A model generated the notes under the pieces. That model was not told where the DNA came from and ran no database searches. It saw nothing but the letters and a program-made list of their open reading frames with translations. The translations under genes were made by a program, and so were the position numbers. This document shows, one piece after another, positions 1 through 5,814 of a stretch of 9,382 bases of DNA. This DNA is from JBFMHD01 sp040752395 [NCBI: Candidatus Hydrogenedentota bacterium] (GTDB taxonomy: Bacteria; JBFMHD01). The stretch covers positions 1 to 9,382 of the forward strand of contig JBFMHD010000108.1 of the NCBI GenBank assembly GCA_040752395.1, written 5' to 3'. The stretch's first letter is position 1. The number at the start of each line of letters is the position of its first letter.

Positions 1-186
1 AAGTAGAAGCAAGAAGCAAGATAACGGAAGAAGTGAGAGGTATCAGGACGGGCTACAGGCTACAGGCTACGGACTACAGCCGGCTGGAGCCAAAAGCCAA
101 AAGTCTGCTGAAAAGTCTTGAGTCTTGAGTCTTGAGTCTCGAGTCCTGTTTTGACTCACGACTTGCGACTTGTGACTCTTTTCATA
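1..186 (+). repeat. Dispersed composite repeat, copy R1
   Basis: Non-coding repeat whose second copy (R2) lies at 4979-5157 in the same orientation. It is a chain of 7-bp tandem arrays: AGAAGCA twice (5-18), CTACAGG-type four times (53-80), AGCCAAA twice (88-101), AGTCTTG-type five times (114-148) and GACTCAC-type four times (153-180). R1 has one more CTACAGG unit than R2, otherwise there are only scattered substitutions. The left edge is the window edge, so the element may extend further. No open frame with protein-like composition covers it and there are no transposase genes or obvious terminal repeats. Function unknown; it resembles heptamer STRR-type repeats of cyanobacteria in style. Confidence 0.9.
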
Positions 187-309
187 CTTTGTGCCTCTGT
201 GCCTCTGTGCCTTTCCCTTCTGTCTCCTGTCTCCTGTCTTCTTTCTGCCTTTGCCTGCCTGCCGCGGCGGAGTGCGGCGCAGGCAGGTGCCTCTGTGCCT
301 GTGCCTTCG
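187..309. repeat. Pyrimidine-rich 8-bp and 7-bp tandem arrays
   Basis: Continuation of the gene-free block after R1. GTGCCTCT-type 8-mers occur three times at 191-214, then CTGTCTC-type 7-mers three times at 220-240, then degenerate CTTTCTG/CCTTTGC-like units to about 260. More GTGCCT words follow at 288-308. The strand shown is strongly C/T-rich. Open frames that cross it give Cys/Leu/Ser-rich low-complexity peptides and are not credible genes. Confidence 0.75.
254..287. other. GC-rich stem-loop (REP-like)
   Basis: Perfect 9-bp inverted repeat CCTGCCTGC (254-262) / GCAGGCAGG (279-287). A further 3 bp (CGC 263-265 with GCG 274-276) can pair inside it, leaving the 8-base loop GGCGGAGT. It is far richer in G+C than the surrounding DNA, suggesting a small palindromic repeat. 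No T-run follows on either side, so it does not look like an intrinsic terminator. Confidence 0.55.
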
Positions 310-331
310 TGCTTAATAAATGCCTTAAGCA
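310..331. other. 7-bp stem-loop downstream of the LOG gene
   Basis: Perfect inverted repeat TGCTTAA (310-316) / TTAAGCA (325-331) with an 8-base loop. It lies about 80 bases past the stop of the minus-strand LOG gene, so it could end or stabilise that transcript, but no U-run follows it on the minus strand. The DNA between it and the stop codon (332-413) is AT-rich with nothing else recognisable. Confidence 0.35.
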
Positions 332-413
332 TTCACTTGAACCCTAAAAATGATGCTTTTAAAAAAGAGCTGGAAAAATTATTTAATTATGTTAATATAT
401 TATTATAATTCTT

Positions 414-929
414 TCAAGTTAAATTTGATATTATATCCTGTAATTTATTAAAAAATATAACGTATTTTAAAATGGCTGATTCTTTTGTTTTTTGGTCTAT
501 GGAATATATTTTAAGCAGGTCATAAACAGGTCTCCAAAAATTATGAATAAAGATCTTTCGTGGCTTTTTAAACCCCTTATTAATGAATTCGCAGATAATT
601 GATAATTCTGCAAGTGTTCCTGTACCACCGGGAAAGATTATATATACGCTACCCATATTAATAAGAGTATCTATTCGATCAAGTAGATTATCTTTTTCAA
701 TAATTTCATCTATATAGTTATTAATACCTGATCTAAATTTCGAGAGAGTGATACCAATGGTTTTACCCTTGATCTCTTTTGCACCTTTACTCGATGCCTC
801 CATAATACCACCATAACCACCATTAACAATTGTATAACCACGTTTTGCAAGTTCAAATCCTGTTTCATAGGCTAAATTATCATAAATAGAATAAGATGAG
901 TTACCAAAGATTGTAGCATATTTTTGCAT
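414..929 (-). CDS. LOG-family / lysine-decarboxylase-like nucleotide hydrolase
   Basis: A 171-aa protein of the LOG (Lonely Guy) / 'lysine decarboxylase-like' Rossmann family. Members characterised in plants, fungi and some bacteria release adenine-type bases from nucleoside 5'-monophosphates, classically cytokinin ribotides; many bacterial members act as general nucleotide phosphoribohydrolases. Signature motifs are visible: GGYGGIMEA at residues 37-45 and the catalytic/phosphate motif PGGTGTLAEL at 100-109, with an upstream Arg-bearing helix (DRIDTLI, 84-90). The length suits the short TIGR00725-type subfamily. The ATG at 929 has no clear Shine-Dalgarno, but a good promoter lies 24-52 bases upstream, leaving a short leader. 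It is transcribed away from the kinase gene and appears monocistronic. The true substrate is not readable from sequence; despite the family's old name, decarboxylase activity is unlikely. Confidence 0.85.
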   Translation of the reverse strand: MQKYATIFGNSSYSIYDNLAYETGFELAKRGYTIVNGGYGGIMEASSKGAKEIKGKTIGITLSKFRSGINNYIDEIIEKDNLLDRIDTLINMGSVYIIFPGGTGTLAELSIICEFINKGFKKPRKIFIHNFWRPVYDLLKIYSIDQKTKESAILKYVIFFNKLQDIISNLT

Positions 930-940
930 AAATGTTTATC

Positions 941-981
941 AGTGACCACTCAATTAAAATATATTTTATGAATGTAGTCAA
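941..981 (-). promoter_or_regulatory. Sigma-70-type promoter for the LOG gene, with palindrome at the start site
   Basis: Read on the minus strand, -35 TTGACT (981-976) and -10 TTTAAT (958-953) are each 5/6 matches to consensus, separated by an ideal 17-bp spacer. The expected transcription start is near 946, about 17 bases before the ATG. A small palindrome AGTG-AC-CACT (941-950) overlaps that start and could be an operator, though its arms are only 4 bp. I found no equally good promoter for the divergent kinase gene in this 95-bp gap. Confidence 0.65.
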
Positions 982-1024
982 TATTTCTATTTACAAAAAA
1001 GATTAAAGATACTAATGTATATTT

Positions 1025-2689
1025 ATGAATAACAAGATATCGCTAAAGATTCTAAGAAGAAAACCTATAAAATTAGAACCCAATAAGACAGTTAAAGAGA
1101 TATTTGCTTACACCAGGTTCAAGACCGACTTACCTATATTTGCAGCAAAGGTCAATAATCGTCTTGTCTCTCTTGATTATGTTGTCAAATTTGATTCATA
1201 CATAGAGCCGCTTACATATAATTCAAAAGAGGGCGCATCTATTTATAGAAGGAGTCTAACACATATTTTGGTCCAGGCAATAATCGAATTATATCCTGAT
1301 GTAAGACCTGTTGTTGGACAATCAATATTAAATGGTTATTATTACGATCTAAAAAATGGGCCTAAAATGACAAATAAAATCTTAAAAAACATCACTTCCA
1401 AAATGAAAAGTATTATAAAAGAAGACAGGGTTTTCAAATTTTCAAGGTTCCCTGTTGAATATGCCTGTAAATTTTTTGAAGAGAAAAATTACATAGATAA
1501 ATCACGGCTTTTGAAATATTATCCAAGAGAGAGGGTTGATGTATGTATATGTGGCGAATTTGTTGATATAGCAAATGGTCCCTATGTTCCATCAACAAAA
1601 TATATAACCGCTTTTGAGCTTTATAAATATCCCCCTGGTTTTGTTTTACGTTTCCCAAAATCAAAAGACCCGTTTAACTTAGCTAAAATAAAAGGAAAAG
1701 AGAGAAAATTATTTAATATCTACAAAGAGACGAGAGAGTGGAATGAGATACTTGGTTTAGAAAATATCTCTGATCTGAATAAAATAATTAATGAGGGCGA
1801 TATCTTAGAAGAAATAATGATAGCTGAGGGTCTGCATGAAAAAAAGATTGTAAAGATAGCAGATGAGATAACAAAAAGAAAAAATATAAGGCTTATCGTT
1901 ATTGCCGGTCCATCAGCTTCAGGAAAAACAACGTTTGCTAAAAGATTAATAATCCAGCTTAAAGTGAACGGGCTGCGACCTGTACAAATATCTGTTGACG
2001 ATTATTTTGTTGATAGAGAAAAGACGCCGCGAGATGAAAAAGGTGACTATGATTTCGAGTCGCTCGGTGCTGTTGATGTAAAATTACTTAATGAACATCT
2101 TCTGAAACTCTTTGAAGGGAGTAGCGTTTCTCTGCCTGAATTTAATTTTAAAAAGGGTAAACAAATGCTGGATGTAAAACCGCCTCTAAAAATTGACTCT
2201 GACCAGATAATCATTCTTGAAGGGATCCATGGTCTTAATGAAGCCCTGACACCACATATCCCTAAAAATATAAAATATAAAATCTATGTTAGCTCACTTA
2301 CACAGCTCTGCCTTGATTATAATAACCGCATCTTTACCTCAGATACACGGCTTTTACGAAGAATTGTTCGTGACGCACAGTTCCGCGGTTATACGGCAAC
2401 AAGTACATTATCACGCTGGCAGTCTGTTCGACGCGGTGAGGCAAAAAATATTTTCCCGTTCCAGGAAGAATCTAATGTGATGTTTAATTCGGCTCTGATA
2501 TATGAACAATGCGTTTTAAAATTATATGCCCAGCCACAGCTAAACAGGGTGAGACCTGCTGATCCAAATTATGCTGAGGCTCGAAGATTGTATGATTTTC
2601 TTGATTATTTTCTCCCTGTTTTCCCGGATGACGTACCCCAGACCTCTATATTACGTGAATTCATTGGCGGTTCAAAATTTGAATATTAA
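1025..2689 (+). CDS. TGS / tRNA-SAD-like / uridine kinase fusion (nucleoside kinase)
   Basis: A 554-aa three-domain protein. Residues 1 to about 66 are a TGS-like ubiquitin-fold domain and about 70-220 resemble the second additional (SAD) domain of threonyl-tRNA synthetase. Residues 285-530 are a uridine kinase/phosphoribulokinase-type P-loop kinase: Walker A GPSASGKTT at 295-303, substrate-site DDYF at 325-328 and ILEGIHGLN at 397-405. This architecture is a known family annotated as nucleoside (uridine) kinase in Bacteroidota, spirochaetes, Thermotogota and Clostridia; it would phosphorylate uridine/cytidine with ATP or GTP in pyrimidine salvage. The SAD-like part lacks a full HxxxH metal set: LTHILVQAI (78-86) keeps one His where the canonical motif has two, so editing activity is doubtful. 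The ATG at 1025 is the only sensible start but has no strong Shine-Dalgarno. Its TAA (2687-2689) overlaps the dapA stop on the other strand. Confidence 0.88.
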   Translation: MNNKISLKILRRKPIKLEPNKTVKEIFAYTRFKTDLPIFAAKVNNRLVSLDYVVKFDSYIEPLTYNSKEGASIYRRSLTHILVQAIIELYPDVRPVVGQSILNGYYYDLKNGPKMTNKILKNITSKMKSIIKEDRVFKFSRFPVEYACKFFEEKNYIDKSRLLKYYPRERVDVCICGEFVDIANGPYVPSTKYITAFELYKYPPGFVLRFPKSKDPFNLAKIKGKERKLFNIYKETREWNEILGLENISDLNKIINEGDILEEIMIAEGLHEKKIVKIADEITKRKNIRLIVIAGPSASGKTTFAKRLIIQLKVNGLRPVQISVDDYFVDREKTPRDEKGDYDFESLGAVDVKLLNEHLLKLFEGSSVSLPEFNFKKGKQMLDVKPPLKIDSDQIIILEGIHGLNEALTPHIPKNIKYKIYVSSLTQLCLDYNNRIFTSDTRLLRRIVRDAQFRGYTATSTLSRWQSVRRGEAKNIFPFQEESNVMFNSALIYEQCVLKLYAQPQLNRVRPADPNYAEARRLYDFLDYFLPVFPDDVPQTSILREFIGGSKFEY

Positions 2690-3561
2690 ATAACCCCTTT
2701 CTCTTTTAATATTTTTTCTAATCTCTCTTTGTTTGACTGTGACATCTTTACAAGTGGTAACCTTAAATTATCCTCAATAAGCTCCATCATTGACATAGCT
2801 GTCTTCACAGGTATCGGGTTTGTTTCAAGAAACATAGCTTTTGAGATGTCAAACAGATATTCGTGTATCAAAAGAGCCTGTTCCCATTTGTCATCAAAAA
2901 AAGAATCTACAAGTTGAGCCACTTTAGAAGGCAAAATATTTGCTGTCACAGATACCACTCCCTTACCACCCACAGCAAGTATCGGTAAAGTAAGAGCATC
3001 ATCACCAGAAAGAACTACAAAATCATCACGTGTTCTTAATATTATCTCTTCAATCTGCTGCATATTACCACTCGCTTCTTTAACACCCACGATGTTTCCT
3101 ATCTTATTTAATTTTTCTATCGTGGCTGGCTCTAAATTTACACCTGTTCTACCAGGAACATTATACAAAATAATAGGTAAATGAGTAGAATCAGAAATAG
3201 CTTTGAAATGTTGGTAGAGTCCCTCCTGCGTAGGTTTATTATAATATGGTGTAATAACAAGACAGGCTTCTGCACCGGCTTGCGTAGCAAAGCAAATAAG
3301 CTCGATTGATTCTTTGGTATTATTAGACCCGCAGCCAGCAATAACAGGTATCCTGCCAGCGGAAGCATCAACAACAGTTTTAATAATATTTTTGTGTTCT
3401 TCATGAGAGAGTGTTGCGCTCTCGCCTGTGGTTCCGCAGGGTAATATCCAATCGCTGCCTTTCTCTATATGAAACTCTACAAGTTCTTTTATTTTTTTGT
3501 AGTCAACGCTACCATCATTTTTAAAAGGCGTCACTAAAGCAACAACGCTACCGTATATCAT
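2686..3561 (-). CDS. dapA: 4-hydroxy-tetrahydrodipicolinate synthase
   Basis: A class I (Schiff-base) aldolase that condenses pyruvate with aspartate semialdehyde, the first committed step to diaminopimelate and lysine; cytosolic TIM barrel. With the start at 3561 the protein is 291 aa and every catalytic residue falls at the E. coli position: T44/T45 in GTTGES, Y107, Y133 and R138 in YNVPGRTG, and Schiff-base lysine K161 in GVKEASG. That numbering fixes the start, rather than an upstream in-frame codon at 3600. AGGA lies 7 bases before this ATG. The ATG overlaps the ruvC stop in an ATGA quartet, so translation is probably coupled to ruvC. The stop overlaps the stop of the convergent kinase gene, leaving no room for a terminator between them. 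I see no regulatory riboswitch and no other lysine-pathway gene nearby. Confidence 0.97.
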   Translation of the reverse strand: MIYGSVVALVTPFKNDGSVDYKKIKELVEFHIEKGSDWILPCGTTGESATLSHEEHKNIIKTVVDASAGRIPVIAGCGSNNTKESIELICFATQAGAEACLVITPYYNKPTQEGLYQHFKAISDSTHLPIILYNVPGRTGVNLEPATIEKLNKIGNIVGVKEASGNMQQIEEIILRTRDDFVVLSGDDALTLPILAVGGKGVVSVTANILPSKVAQLVDSFFDDKWEQALLIHEYLFDISKAMFLETNPIPVKTAMSMMELIEDNLRLPLVKMSQSNKERLEKILKEKGVI

Positions 3562-4052
3562 AGTAGATTCCTGTTGGTTCTTAAATTCAGTCCGCAGCAA
3601 ATGGCTATAACCAGAGCATCAGCTGCATCATCATATCCGGGTATTTTATCAATGTTCGTAATCTTTGTCAATGCCCGTTGTATCTGAATTTTATCGGCTC
3701 GACCATACCCAAGTACTGATTTTTTCACTTCAAGCGGTGTATATTCTTTAACAGTTAGACCTTTTCTCGCACACGCTAATTTTATTACACCAAGCGATTG
3801 TGCAACCTCTATAGCGGTTTTAGTGTTTTTAGAAAATAATATTTTTTCTACACCCGCATAATCAGGTTTAAAATGTGTTATCAAGCTATCAACCTCATCA
3901 TAAATCCGTGATAATCTTAATGAAAAATTATCATTTTTTTCAGTTTTTATCACACCATAAGAAATAACAGCTATTTTATTAATTTTTGAATTAAGAGATA
4001 TTACCCCATAACCAGACGTCGCAATTCCAGGATCAAACCCCACAACAATCAT
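3558..4052 (-). CDS. ruvC: Crossover junction endodeoxyribonuclease RuvC
   Basis: RuvC is the dimeric nuclease that nicks Holliday junctions symmetrically, normally with the RuvAB branch-migration motor. The 164-aa length is typical. The RNase H-fold acidic residues are all present: D7 in GFDPGIATSGYG, E69 in GVEKILF, and the C-terminal DDAADAL pair (D142, D145); K121 in the ADK motif matches the conserved basic residue. AAGGA lies 10 bases before the ATG. The gene follows yebC, the usual bacterial pairing, but it is followed by dapA where ruvA and ruvB are often found; those genes must lie elsewhere. The 130-bp gap from yebC holds a fragment of the dispersed repeat. Confidence 0.96.
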   Translation of the reverse strand: MIVVGFDPGIATSGYGVISLNSKINKIAVISYGVIKTEKNDNFSLRLSRIYDEVDSLITHFKPDYAGVEKILFSKNTKTAIEVAQSLGVIKLACARKGLTVKEYTPLEVKKSVLGYGRADKIQIQRALTKITNIDKIPGYDDAADALVIAICCGLNLRTNRNLL

Positions 4053-4080
4053 TATAAATTGGTCCTTGTTCTTTTTTCTT

Positions 4081-4165
4081 ACATCTTGCTTCTTGCTTCT
4101 TGATATCCCCTCAGTCTACTACGGGTCTTGTGACCCTCACTACTCTGTGTCTCTTTCGTTATCTT
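4081..4165 (-). repeat. Truncated, inverted relative of R1/R2 in the ruvC leader
   Basis: Between yebC and ruvC, the strand shown carries CTTGCTT twice followed by CTTGATA (4085-4105). This is the reverse complement of the AGAAGCA start of R1/R2. A second stretch at about 4150-4165 (TTTCGTTATCTT) is the complement of the AAGATAACG part, with one difference. The middle is unrelated and holds a 5-bp hairpin GGGTC-TTGT-GACCC (4123-4136). This is best read as a degraded inverted copy. It would be transcribed as leader RNA just ahead of the ruvC ribosome site. No terminator-like U-run is present. Confidence 0.6.
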
Positions 4166-4182
4166 ATAATTAAGCAGTTACA

Positions 4183-4932
4183 TCATAAATTGGCTTTTTG
4201 TAATATCTGCTCCGGGATATCCATATTGGTAGTAACCTTATTAATGTCATCGAGTTCTTCAAGCGCTTCTATTAATCTCATATTTTTTTCTGCTGTCCCT
4301 ATATCAATCTCAGTATAATTATCCGGAACGAGGTTAACATCAGCTTCTTTAATTTCAAATTTAAAATCTTGTAAACCTTTTTTTACTTTTTCAAAATCTT
4401 CAAATTCAGTTTTTATAATAATTTCATCCTCATCGACCTCAAAATCAGAGGCTCCACTATTAATAGCAACATCAAGTATCTCTTCTTCTTTGTCAGATTT
4501 TTTAATAATAATAACACCCCTGCGTTTAAAATTCCATGCCACAGCACCGCGTTCAGCCAGACGCCCATTATGTTTGCTGAATATATTTCTTACCTCAGAG
4601 GTTATCCTGTTTTTATTATCAGTAACAGCTTCAACTACGATAGCTATGCCTCCAGGGCCATATCCTTCATAAATAATATCTTCATAGTTCACACCTGGTA
4701 ACTCACCTGTACCCCGGGCAATAGCCTTTTTAATGTTATCCATCGGCATATTAGCTTCTCTGGCTTTAGTAACCACGAGTCTGAGTCTCGCATTTGAATT
4801 TATATCACCGCTCCCACCTGTTTTAGCAGCTATTGTTATTTCTTTGGCAAGTTTAGAAAATAATTTTCCCTTTTTAGCATCCTGGTTCTCTTTTTGTCTT
4901 TTAATCTTACTCCATTTGGAATGTCCTGACAC
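4183..4932 (-). CDS. yebC: YebC/PmpR family translation/regulatory factor
   Basis: A 249-aa cytosolic protein of the YebC/PmpR/TACO1 family. Members were long annotated as transcriptional regulators; more recent work links YebC and TACO1 proteins to relief of ribosome stalling at proline-rich stretches. The family's N-terminal signature MSGHSKWSKIK is intact, followed by a basic KLFSKLAKEI helix (24-33), NMPMDNIKKAI (61-71), the YEGYGPGGIAI loop (88-98) and the NGRLAERGAVAW segment (122-133). The acidic C-terminal domains are complete. The start is a GTG (4932-4930) placed by the signature, with AGAGGAG about 13 bases upstream. Pairing with ruvC downstream is the usual bacterial arrangement. 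A TATAAT at 4970-4965 may be its -10 box. Confidence 0.96.
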   Translation of the reverse strand: MSGHSKWSKIKRQKENQDAKKGKLFSKLAKEITIAAKTGGSGDINSNARLRLVVTKAREANMPMDNIKKAIARGTGELPGVNYEDIIYEGYGPGGIAIVVEAVTDNKNRITSEVRNIFSKHNGRLAERGAVAWNFKRRGVIIIKKSDKEEEILDVAINSGASDFEVDEDEIIIKTEFEDFEKVKKGLQDFKFEIKEADVNLVPDNYTEIDIGTAEKNMRLIEALEELDDINKVTTNMDIPEQILQKANL

Positions 4933-4943
4933 AGTGTAAATCT

Positions 4944-4970
4944 ACTCCTCTGAAAAACATTGTAATTATA
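4944..4970 (-). promoter_or_regulatory. Possible yebC -10 box and ribosome site at the repeat edge
   Basis: Minus strand: a perfect TATAAT at 4970-4965, about 25 bases of leader, then AGAGGAG at 4952-4946 ahead of the GTG start. The position suits a promoter, but no good -35 is at 16-18 bp; TTGCTT words occur at spacers of 14 and 21 inside repeat R2. If used, the upstream half of the promoter would be supplied by the repeat. In such AT-rich DNA a chance TATAAT is quite possible. Confidence 0.35.
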
Positions 4971-4978
4971 ATAATATC

Positions 4979-5157
4979 AAGTAGAAGCAAGAAGCAAGAT
5001 AACGGAAGAAGTGAGAGGTATCAGGACAGGCTACAGGCTACGGACTACAGCCGACTGGAGCCCAAAGCCCAAAGCCTGCTGAAAAGTCTTGAGTCTTGAG
5101 TCTTGAGTCTCGAGTCCTGTTTTGACTCACGACTTGCGACTCATGACTCTTTTCATA
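4979..5157 (+). repeat. Dispersed composite repeat, copy R2
   Basis: Second copy of the element at 1-186, same orientation, 4978 bp away start to start. It has the same order of heptamer arrays: CTACAGG-type (5031-5051, three units instead of four), AGTCTTG-type (5085-5119) and GACTCAC-type (5124-5151). Differences from R1 are one deleted 7-bp unit plus a handful of substitutions. After TTTCAT the copies diverge, although a short TTTCAT/CTTTGTG likeness reappears about 20 bases on (5170-5183). It sits directly upstream of yebC. Confidence 0.9.
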
Positions 5158-5180
5158 TCATCTTTAGTTTTTCATGCTTT

Positions 5181-5241
5181 GTGTAGAGCGCAAAAACGCA
5201 ATAACCCAATAACCCAATAGTGTAGAGCGCAACCCGCGCTC
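5181..5241. repeat. Duplicated GTGTAGAGCGCAA with 8-bp units between and a GC-rich hairpin
   Basis: GTGTAGAGCGCAA occurs at 5181-5193 and again at 5220-5232. Between them lies an AATAACCC-type 8-bp repeat (about 5200-5217). The second copy forms a perfect hairpin GAGCGC (5225-5230), loop AACCC, GCGCTC (5236-5241); the first copy has CAAAAACGC in place of the 3' arm. This looks like a small palindromic repeat. No gene is present. Confidence 0.65.
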
Positions 5242-5261
5242 ATGGGTACTCCTTCGAAAAA

Positions 5262-5303
5262 GTTCGGAGCTCGGAGTTCGGAGCTCGGAGTTCGGAGCTC
5301 GGA
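5262..5303. repeat. Six perfect alternating heptamers (three 14-bp units)
   Basis: GTTCGGA and GCTCGGA alternate strictly, three times each, with no errors across 42 bases. The real unit is therefore 14 bp built from two diverged 7-mers. The lack of decay suggests recent expansion or active homogenisation. It contains GAGCTC palindromes at each 14-bp step. Confidence 0.92.
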
Positions 5304-5315
5304 TCTATTATTACA

Positions 5316-5376
5316 AACTCCTAACTTCTAACTCCTATGACAAGTTAAAAGTAAAAAGTCAAAAGTTAAAAGTAAA
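5316..5376. repeat. Two further heptamer arrays
   Basis: AACTCCT/AACTTCT-type 7-mers occur three times at 5316-5336. AAGTTAA/AAGTAAA-type 7-mers follow, five times, at 5342-5376. The two families are near reverse complements in flavour (AACTT versus AAGTT cores) and can pair with each other over short stretches. From 5377 to 5436 I see only ordinary AT-rich sequence. Confidence 0.85.
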
Positions 5377-5420
5377 GAAAGCGAAAATATACACTTCCTT
5401 GCCGTATCTTTCAATCTTTG

Positions 5421-5450
5421 AATCCCTGGACTGACTTCAGTCAGCGGATT
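5421..5450 (-). other. Hairpin spanning the stop codon of the small membrane-protein gene
   Basis: CTGAC (5431-5435) / GTCAG (5440-5444) form a 5-bp stem with a 4-base loop that contains part of the stop codon. Flanking AATCC (5421-5425) / GGATT (5446-5450) can extend it across a bulge. It lies at the end of the right-hand operon, where a terminator would be expected. No U-run follows on the minus strand, so it is at most a Rho-independent-like relic or a 3'-end stabiliser. Confidence 0.3.
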
Positions 5451-5814
5451 GAAGAATTTCAATTTCTTGAAGACTCATCTGTAATTTGGTAGCTACCTCT
5501 TCATCGGAAACACCCTTTTCTTTGAGATTTCTTATTACAGTTTTTAATTTATCTCTGTCAAGAAGAACCCTTGTTTTTTTCTCTGTCTCTCTGGAACTAT
5601 TTATTATCGCTTTAAGTTCTTCTTTTGCTTGCTCAAGATCACTTATATACAATTCTGCGACTCTGTTAAATTCGCTTATAAGTAGATTAATGTTTTCTCT
5701 CTCTCTCTTAAAACTATCCTCATATTTGATAATTTTTTTTATAATGAGTATATAAAAGATAAGAACTACAATACTATTCAATACTACAAATAATCCGATT
5801 ACACCATAAATCAT
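5437..5814 (-). CDS. Small membrane/coiled-coil protein with HTH-like tail (DUF6115/DUF2802-like)
   Basis: A 125-aa protein: one hydrophobic N-terminal segment (about 4-25) followed by basic residues KKIIK, which predicts anchoring with the bulk in the cytoplasm. A long charged coiled-coil helix covers about 31-85. The C-terminus has a short helix-turn-helix-like motif, GVSDEEVATKLQMSLQEIEIL (split here as 101-110 and 111-121). This layout matches small proteins annotated DUF6115 or DUF2802 that sit beside motility genes in Bacillota and Pseudomonadota; SwrB, next to sigD in Bacillus, has a similar shape. Family assignment is from memory of pattern, not a search. Its ATG overlaps the fapA stop in an ATGA quartet, so it is probably translationally coupled and made with FapA and the sigma factor. 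Exact role unknown. Confidence 0.75.
   Translation of the reverse strand: MIYGVIGLFVVLNSIVVLIFYILIIKKIIKYEDSFKRERENINLLISEFNRVAELYISDLEQAKEELKAIINSSRETEKKTRVLLDRDKLKTVIRNLKEKGVSDEEVATKLQMSLQEIEILQSAD

What the first reader, a model, noticed from the sequence alone, without database searches (positions are those of the whole stretch)
1..5376. Many unrelated tandem arrays share one 7-bp period
At least nine arrays in three gene-free places have a 7-bp period but different motifs: AGAAGCA, CTACAGG, AGCCAAA, AGTCTTG, GACTCAC, CTGTCTC, GTTCGGA/GCTCGGA, AACTCCT, AAGTTAA/AAGTAAA. CTTGCTT in the ruvC leader is the first of these inverted. A shared period without a shared sequence points to a mechanism that measures length (slippage, templated copying, or a protein or RNA contacting DNA every 7 bases) rather than to descent from one satellite. 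Cyanobacterial STRR heptamers are the closest known parallel, but those are usually one motif at a time. Two short 8-bp arrays (191-214 and about 5200-5217) are exceptions.
Basis: partly seen in the sequence, partly recalled or inferred. Interest (0 to 1): 0.72.

Follow-up and report, generated by a model that had tools for sequence, protein, structure and literature searches.

The report
Seven-base repeats build paired hairpin arms
Some of the different seven-base repeats in this stretch of bacterial DNA turn out to be the two facing arms of imperfect hairpins, and similar seven-step hairpins turn up in some other bacterial genomes, which suggests that the way hairpins grow matters as well as how DNA copying slips.

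Summary
In detail: 10 lag-7 runs of 9 or more matches in 1,142 spacer bases, against 0.01 expected. But the arrays are not all independent: 1-186 and 4979-5157 are copies of one element, CTTGCTT is the first array inverted, and within the element CTACAGG faces AGCCAAA, and AGTCTTG faces GACTNNN, as hairpin arms. For AACTCCT/AAGTTAA and the GTTCGGA array, pairing is not beyond chance. No genome is held for the window, so I tested others. In stretches of five heptad-rich genomes there are 188 period-7 arrays, against 43 of period 8 and 16 of period 6. Of 279 heptad arrays, 107 have a reverse-complement partner within 120 bp, against 24 and 6 for control transforms and 17 of 558 random segments. 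Mismatches recur every 7 bases, and unpaired letters repeat within each arm, so arms are homogenised separately. Heptamer excess, the slippage idea, heptad stems in the Nostoc trnL intron and inverted GGGAATC pairs in Xanthomonas are in print; extending this to many motifs and several phyla is what is added. Why the step is 7 stays unexplained.

The parts
1..186 (+). Composite dispersed element, copy 1: arrays AGAAGCA, CTACAGG, AGCCAAA, AGTCTTG and GACTCAC/GACTTGC in order
   Evidence: 95% identical to copy 2 over a 132-nt block; copies differ by one 7-nt unit and a few substitutions
4979..5157 (+). Composite dispersed element, copy 2
56..107 (.). Hairpin A, copy 1: arms 56-80 (GGCTACA units) and 83-107 (AGCCAAA units)
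   Evidence: inverted pairing score 7; reached by 103 of 2000 column-permuted nulls, so weak on its own
5027..5078 (.). Hairpin A, copy 2: arms 5027-5050 and 5055-5078; one unit shorter and better paired
   Evidence: score 10; reached by 3 of 2000 nulls; folds
111..180 (.). Hairpin B, copy 1: arms 111-142 (AGTCTTG units) and 149-180 (GACTNNN units), mismatches mostly 7 apart
   Evidence: score 12; 55 of 2000 nulls
5082..5151 (.). Hairpin B, copy 2: arms 5082-5113 and 5120-5151
   Evidence: score 16, 17 of 2000 nulls; 5142-5143 (CA) versus 171-172 (TG) turn G.T-type oppositions into Watson-Crick pairs
4083..4102 (-). CTTGCTT array in the ruvC leader, with an exact 18-nt inverse (4083-4100) of the element's start (5-22); no partner arm nearby
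   Evidence: flank score 6, not above controls
190..212 (+). 8-bp array TGTGCCTC (exception)
220..239 (+). 7-bp array CTGTCTC, no partner found
5199..5219 (+). 8-bp array CAATAACC (exception)
5261..5303 (.). 14-bp unit AGTTCGGAGCTCGG (two heptads), contains GAGCTC
   Evidence: self-pairing score 20 is reached by 455 of 2000 nulls, so not significant
5317..5373 (.). Possible hairpin C: 5317-5333 (AACTCCT units) and 5357-5373 (AAGTTAA/AAGTAAA units)
   Evidence: 13 of 17 positions complementary, but 306 of 2000 nulls do as well

Best explanation
Many heptad arrays, in this window most clearly those of the composite element, are arms of imperfect hairpins that grow and shrink in whole 7-nt units. 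A spacer acquires a short inverted repeat; each arm then lengthens by unit duplication (slippage) and is homogenised on its own, so the two arms end up with different-looking heptamers that still share a complementary core in each unit. Pairing of the core is kept either because the stem-loop is useful or because one arm is copied from the other during replication (template switching at a quasi-palindrome). Some such hairpins, like the 180-bp element here, also sit in more than one spacer. Shown: dominance of period 7 in some genomes, complementary partner arms, 7-phased mismatches, separate homogenisation, a one-unit length difference and pairing-changing differences between the two copies. 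Inferred: slippage and template switching as the process. Not explained: why the step is 7, and the arrays that have no partner.
For: Partner test: 107 of 279 arrays have a reverse-complement segment scoring at least 12 within 120 bp, against 24 (complement) and 6 (reverse); reverse complement beats complement 179 to 58, p 1.5e-15; random segments 17 of 558; without RAGTC-like arrays 85 of 209 against 21 and 4. Phasing: mismatch spacings in the 107 pairs are commonest at 7 (217; 86 at 6, 83 at 8, 105 each at 1 and 2), with further peaks at 14 and 21. Homogenisation: in 90 non-redundant pairs, unpaired letters of the partner arm repeat at distance 7 in 107 of 178, at 6 or 8 in 27 of 138. Converse test: inverted repeats found without asking for periodicity have lag-7 identity 0.38-0.45 in five rich genomes, the highest of lags 3-12 in each, against 0.32 and 0.28 in two poor ones. 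Window: hairpins A and B, copy 2 reached by 3 and 17 of 2000 nulls; copy 1 RNA fold z -3.3.
Against: 172 of 279 arrays have no strong partner within 120 bp; in the window 1 of 7 distinct arrays reaches 12. Hairpin C and the 14-mer are within chance (306 and 455 of 2000), hairpin A copy 1 is borderline (103 of 2000). Arrays of period 8, 10 and 14 have partners too (16 of 53, 16 of 29, 34 of 66), so pairing is not special to 7. A null that permutes columns within all arrays reaches the copy-1 RNA energy in 15 of 500 and the DNA energy in 209 of 500. 5240-5400 folds no better than shuffles (z -0.84). In 67 loci of other bacteria not chosen for repeats the inverted repeats show no lag-7 peak (0.33). 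No strain comparison was possible; slippage and template switching were not observed.
Confidence: 0.55

Rival explanations
1. Plain slippage: DNA polymerase favours 7-nt slips (footprint idea attributed to Mrazek 2007), arrays arise anywhere neutral, and hairpins play no part.
For: Heptanucleotides are reported as the most abundant long repeats in most genomes, with this hypothesis (as quoted). Period 7 dominates here too. 172 of 279 arrays have no strong partner, nor do the CTGTCTC and CTTGCTT arrays here.
Against: Does not predict complementary partner arms (107 of 279 against 24 and 6) or a lag-7 peak in inverted repeats chosen without periodicity. The patchiness (0 in 115 of 148 genomes, 67 matches in one) asks for a genome-specific factor; a mutS1 model is over its cut-off in 29 of 33 pattern-positive and 102 of 115 other genomes.
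Confidence: 0.27
2. Selected RNA stem-loops at gene ends (terminators or 3'-end stabilisers) that happen to be built of heptads.
For: Both element copies lie about 228 and 280 nt beyond the stop of a minus-strand gene (coordinates). Minus-strand terminator-like sites at 5286-5267 and 5400-5375 follow the gene that ends at 5437. Copy 2 minus strand folds at -70.9 kcal/mol. In Xanthomonas 16% of GGGAATC repeats lie between convergent and 7-8% between divergent genes.
Against: The terminator-like sites inside the element (124-143, 5095-5114) are on the plus strand, opposite to the genes. Heptad-hairpin spacers: convergent 12 of 107, divergent 5 of 112, tandem 37 of 548; convergent versus divergent p 0.078, gene-end versus divergent p 0.32 (crude ORF calls). 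This needs no 7-nt step.
Confidence: 0.22
3. Mobile hairpin elements (REP/MITE/SDR-like) whose copies are pasted by a transposase.
For: Two 95% identical copies in 9.4 kb. 51 of 174 arrays in five genomes have a second copy of at least 60 bp at 75% or more in the sampled stretches. Y1_Tnp in 27 of 33 pattern-positive and 74 of 115 other genomes, p 0.088.
Against: 123 of the 174 arrays have no such copy in the sample. Pattern-rich G208, G236 and G329 have no Y1_Tnp match.
Confidence: 0.15
4. Direct-repeat binding sites for a protein or RNA that reads DNA every 7 bases.
For: Fixed spacing with partly conserved core; MacGregor proposes binding for TAACTGA repeats.
Against: 16 to 35 heptamer classes in each of G098, G126, G036 and G282 (5 in G337), and complementary arms, which direct binding does not need.
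Confidence: 0.06

Closest known systems
Inverted GGGAATC heptamer repeats of Xanthomonas
   Same: Intergenic heptamer arrays; in 70 cases (Xcc, 186 repeats) and 75 cases (Xac, 183 repeats) two repeat sites lie close together on opposite strands, and the authors note they could form stem-loops or cruciforms (PMC4692102, section 10)
   Different: One G-rich motif, studied for quadruplexes; similar repeats in Nostoc PCC 7120 gave only a few such pairs (section 11). Here the two arms carry different heptamers, many motifs share a genome, and several phyla are involved.
P6b stem of the Nostoc trnL (tRNA-Leu UAA) intron
   Same: Degenerate heptanucleotide repeats on both sides of a stem pair with each other; two very different motif classes (TDNGATT, NNTGAGT) give similar stems; length changes by repeat units (passages). 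AGTCTTG, rotated to CTTGAGT, fits NNTGAGT.
   Different: One intron locus in cyanobacteria; here intergenic hairpins.
Long simple sequence repeats of 7 nt (Mrazek 2007) and cyanobacterial STRR
   Same: 7-nt unit in tandem, sporadic among genomes
   Different: Described as direct repeats in what I saw. Mrazek 2007 is not held and known here only as quoted; STRR details are recalled.
TAACTGA repeats of marine Beggiatoaceae
   Same: Intergenic heptamer arrays, patchy across phyla
   Different: One motif; 169 direct sets and one indirect; no particular RNA structure predicted for the repeat itself.
REP/BIME and REPIN elements
   Same: Dispersed extragenic palindromes (abstracts in listings)
   Different: Recalled: short tagged palindromes tied to a RAYT transposase; no 7-nt building unit.

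Membership tests
Heptanucleotide simple sequence repeats (STRR/LSSR) | Tandem 7-nt units, in excess over chance | tested here: met
   10 runs against 0.01 expected in window spacers
Heptanucleotide simple sequence repeats (STRR/LSSR) | Genome-wide in the host genome | not testable with these tools
   no genome held for the window
Heptanucleotide simple sequence repeats (STRR/LSSR) | Cyanobacterial host (STRR proper) | tested here: inconclusive
   67 YebC relatives found, at most 59% identical in the best segment, none titled as a cyanobacterium; no tree was built
Heptad hairpins (Nostoc trnL P6b; inverted GGGAATC pairs of Xanthomonas) | Heptads on two arms pair with each other | tested here: met
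   hairpins A and B of copy 2: 3 and 17 of 2000 nulls; not met for C and the 14-mer; 107 of 279 arrays overall
Heptad hairpins (Nostoc trnL P6b; inverted GGGAATC pairs of Xanthomonas) | Located in a group I intron of tRNA-Leu (P6b only) | tested here: not met
   arrays lie in spacers between protein genes; ARAGORN and Rfam were not run
Heptad hairpins (Nostoc trnL P6b; inverted GGGAATC pairs of Xanthomonas) | GGGAATC or GGGGA(C/T)T motif (Xanthomonas/Nostoc type only) | tested here: not met
   none of the window's array units listed is that motif
REP/REPIN | Host Y1 (RAYT) transposase | tested here: inconclusive
   no genome held for the window; in other genomes not required
Intrinsic terminators | G+C-rich stem followed by a T run, at gene ends | tested here: inconclusive
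   scan of 1-5500 finds 8 against 3.4 in shuffles; those inside the element are on the strand opposite to the genes; orientation bias not significant

The most novel reading that the evidence does not exclude
Heptad-phased hairpins are one general class of bacterial intergenic DNA, spread patchily over distant phyla, produced by a process that adds matching 7-nt steps to both arms of a hairpin (slippage coupled to template switching, or an unknown enzyme), so that the long-noted excess of heptamer repeats is to a large part a by-product of hairpin growth.
Probability: 0.28. Interest if true: 0.78.

Novelty: new variant of a known kind. Interest (0 to 1): 0.5.

Why it matters
The heptamer excess in bacterial spacers has been in print since 2007 with little more than a footprint guess to explain it. 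Showing that over a third of the arrays examined have a facing, complementary arm, and that the arms are homogenised separately, explains how different motifs in one locus can share a period and makes the question testable: what extends hairpins in 7-nt steps, and why only in some genomes?

Tried and rejected
Exact element search in GTDB genome contigs and in viral contigs: no hit. WhiG relatives in viral contigs: none. The YebC search gave only distant relatives (at most 59% in the best segment) and WhiG at most 52% in the genomes searched, so the window's phylum stays unassigned. A single 190-nt RNA hairpin was considered; copy 2 does not fold that way, so two adjacent hairpins are preferred. 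Pairing of AACTCCT with AAGTTAA and self-pairing of the 14-mer looked convincing by eye but fail the column-permutation null. A test on consensus heptamers of adjacent arrays was weak (14 inverted, 11 direct, 5 ties at 60 bp or less; 22, 13, 6 at 200 bp or less), partly because split arrays count as direct; it was replaced by the flank test. ORF masking hid arrays; counts are unmasked. Association tests gave no answer: mutS1 29 of 33 vs 102 of 115, Y1_Tnp 27 of 33 vs 74 of 115, SbcD over cut-off 4 of 33 vs 24 of 115 (sorted by hand, tested). RAGTC itself is not special: the backwards control motif occurs at period 7 in 49 of 148 and 39 of 118 genomes (my counts).

Limits: the five rich genomes were chosen for carrying the RAGTC pattern, and seven of the twenty G126 contigs were picked because they had matches; counts without that motif are. 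The pattern loci L085-L144 are ascertained too, and some may overlap the sampled stretches in the other orientation; identical array sequences were counted once, and both arms of one hairpin can count as two arrays (107 arrays, 90 hairpins). Random segments were not kept clear of arrays. Only part of the pattern matches is printed. Phylum labels are inferred from the titles of the loci.
Full report
What is there. The window holds nine likely protein genes, eight of them on the minus strand (a TIGR00730-like protein, a TGS/uridine-kinase-like protein on the plus strand, dapA, ruvC, yebC, a FliA/WhiG sigma factor and three without a firm name). The arrays lie in spacers 1-413, 4053-4182 and 4933-5436. 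In 1,142 spacer bases there are 10 lag-7 runs of at least 9 matches against 0.01 expected, two at lag 8, three at lag 14 and none at lags 4-6, 9-13 and 15; in 8,164 genic bases there is one lag-7 run.

Two of the three places share one element. Positions 1-186 and 4979-5157 are 95% identical over a 132-nt block. They differ by one 7-nt unit in the CTACAGG array and by a repeated change in the next array (AGCCAAA to AGCCCAA in two successive units), as unit slippage and homogenisation would give. The CTTGCTT array before ruvC is an exact 18-nt inverse of positions 5-22.

Some motifs are complementary in pairs. GGCT(ACA) faces AGCC(AAA) (hairpin A) and AGTC(TTG) faces GACT(NNN) (hairpin B). When the columns of the partner array are permuted consistently, the pairing score is reached in 103 and 3 of 2000 nulls for A (copies 1 and 2) and 55 and 17 of 2000 for B. 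AACT(CCT) against AAGTT(AA) and the self-pairing of the 14-mer are within chance (306 and 455 of 2000). CTGTCTC and CTTGCTT have no partner above controls, and AGAAGCA was not scored separately. In hairpin B the only changes between the copies (171-172 TG, 5142-5143 CA) turn two G.T-type oppositions into Watson-Crick pairs; which copy is older is unknown. Copy 1 folds as RNA at -65.6 kcal/mol (z -3.3) and the minus strand of copy 2 at -70.9. Against this, nulls that permute columns in all arrays reach the RNA value in 15 of 500 and the DNA value in 209 of 500. The window alone would be suggestive, not proof.

Is 7 special elsewhere? No genome is held for the window and no close relative was found, so other genomes were used. 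One core at three spacings in the same 148 genomes (phylum of G004, whose locus L008 is titled Deltaproteobacteria): period 7 in 33, period 8 in 10, period 6 in 3 genomes. The tool's backwards control motif gives 49, 14 and 21 (my counts from the same tables). In 118 genomes of the phylum of G002 (L002, Melioribacteraceae): period 7 in 22, period 8 in 11 (p 0.059), control 39 and 17 (my counts). In 149 genomes of the phylum of G013 (L043, Endomicrobiellum): period 7 in 12; other periods were not tested there. Most genomes have none and a few have dozens. In sampled stretches of five rich genomes (G098, G126, G036, G337, G282) there are 188 period-7 arrays, 43 of period 8 and 16 of period 6, or 168, 43 and 16 without RAGTC-like arrays, with 105 consensus heptamer classes summed over the genomes. 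G337 is the weak case: 6 of period 7, equal to periods 9 and 12. Pattern-negative G041 and G052 have 6 and 1 period-7 arrays in 200 kb each. The survey PMC12699852 (passages) reports a subset of 6-9 bp repeats highly enriched in prokaryotic phyla, while trinucleotides are commonest overall.

Are heptad arrays hairpin arms elsewhere? For 279 arrays (window 7, viral contigs 6, pattern loci 85, five genomes 174, poor genomes 7), the best ungapped match of the array's reverse complement in 120 bp on either side was compared with its complement and its reverse. Scores of 12 or more: 107, 24 and 6; reverse complement beats complement in 179 and loses in 58 (p 1.5e-15). Random segments reach 12 in 17 of 558. 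The five genomes alone give 74, 19 and 4 of 174, G098 alone 33, 0 and 0 of 63; the signal is weak in G282 (5, 2, 0 of 26) and G126 (7, 4, 3 of 25). In the 107 pairs, distances between mismatches are commonest at 7 (217; 86 at 6, 83 at 8; 105 each at 1 and 2), with local peaks at 14 (114) and 21 (33). In 90 non-redundant pairs the unpaired letters of the partner arm repeat at distance 7 in 107 of 178, against 27 of 138 at 6 or 8: each arm is homogenised on its own. Starting instead from imperfect inverted repeats, with no periodicity asked, arm identity is highest at lag 7 (among lags 3-12) in all five rich genomes (0.38-0.45), but not in G041, G052 or the 67 YebC loci (0.32, 0.28, 0.33). Arrays of period 8, 10 and 14 also have partners, so 7 is the favoured step of a wider behaviour. 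By coordinates alone, genome G468 shows plus-then-minus pairs of RAGTC heptads within 100 bp at four of the 14 places that I count in the part printed, and viral contig L081 has AGTCTTG units facing CTCAGG/CTCACG units.

How it may work. I infer short inverted repeats in spacers whose arms gain and lose whole 7-nt units by slippage, each arm evening out separately, with cores kept complementary by selection for the stem-loop or by template switching between the arms. What sets 7 is not known; the footprint hypothesis credited to Mrazek 2007 (quoted; the paper itself is not held) could supply it. A mismatch-repair gene and two other candidate factors showed no clear association. A role at gene ends is possible but unproven: hairpin spacers are 12 of 107 convergent, 5 of 112 divergent and 37 of 548 tandem (crude ORF calls; p 0.078 for convergent against divergent).

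What is known. Heptamer excess and patchiness are in print (PMC4692102, passages and sections 10 and 11; PMC4679880, abstract and sections 3, 9 and 24). PMC4692102 already reports inverted pairs of one heptamer, GGGAATC: 70 cases in one Xanthomonas and 75 in another, with only a few in Nostoc PCC 7120. Heptanucleotide repeats pairing as the two sides of one stem are known from the Nostoc trnL intron (PMC3488679 and PMC4476775, passages). Elhai's small dispersed repeats of cyanobacteria are recalled only. PMC4060949 (passages) reports inverted repeats over-represented in bacteria, not tied to heptads in what I saw. I found no paper stating that heptamer arrays of many motifs are generally paired, separately homogenised hairpin arms in searches, which cover only open-licence papers and of which I saw mostly listings. 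On checking, the confidence, the novel-case odds and the interest were lowered a little because.

Noticed in passing
window 253-288: A GC-rich inverted repeat (GCCTGCCTGCCGC ... GCGGCGCAGGCAGG) sits inside the array region, between two TGTGCCT stretches.
   Followed up: no
genome G327: The backwards control motif CTGAR at period 7 has 183 matches (89 forward, 94 reverse) in a 3.9 Mb genome: an extreme heptad-rich case with another motif.
   Followed up: no
genome G385: All 31 RAGTC heptad matches are on the forward strand and none on the reverse of the contigs; this may be chance of contig orientation or a strand preference.
   Followed up: no
L080:1-94: An IMG/VR contig piece begins with a perfect 94-nt CTTGAGT array right at its end, perhaps an assembly break in a longer array.
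   Followed up: no
genome G468: The same genome carries both many period-7 (77) and many period-8 (40) RAGTC pattern matches.
   Followed up: no
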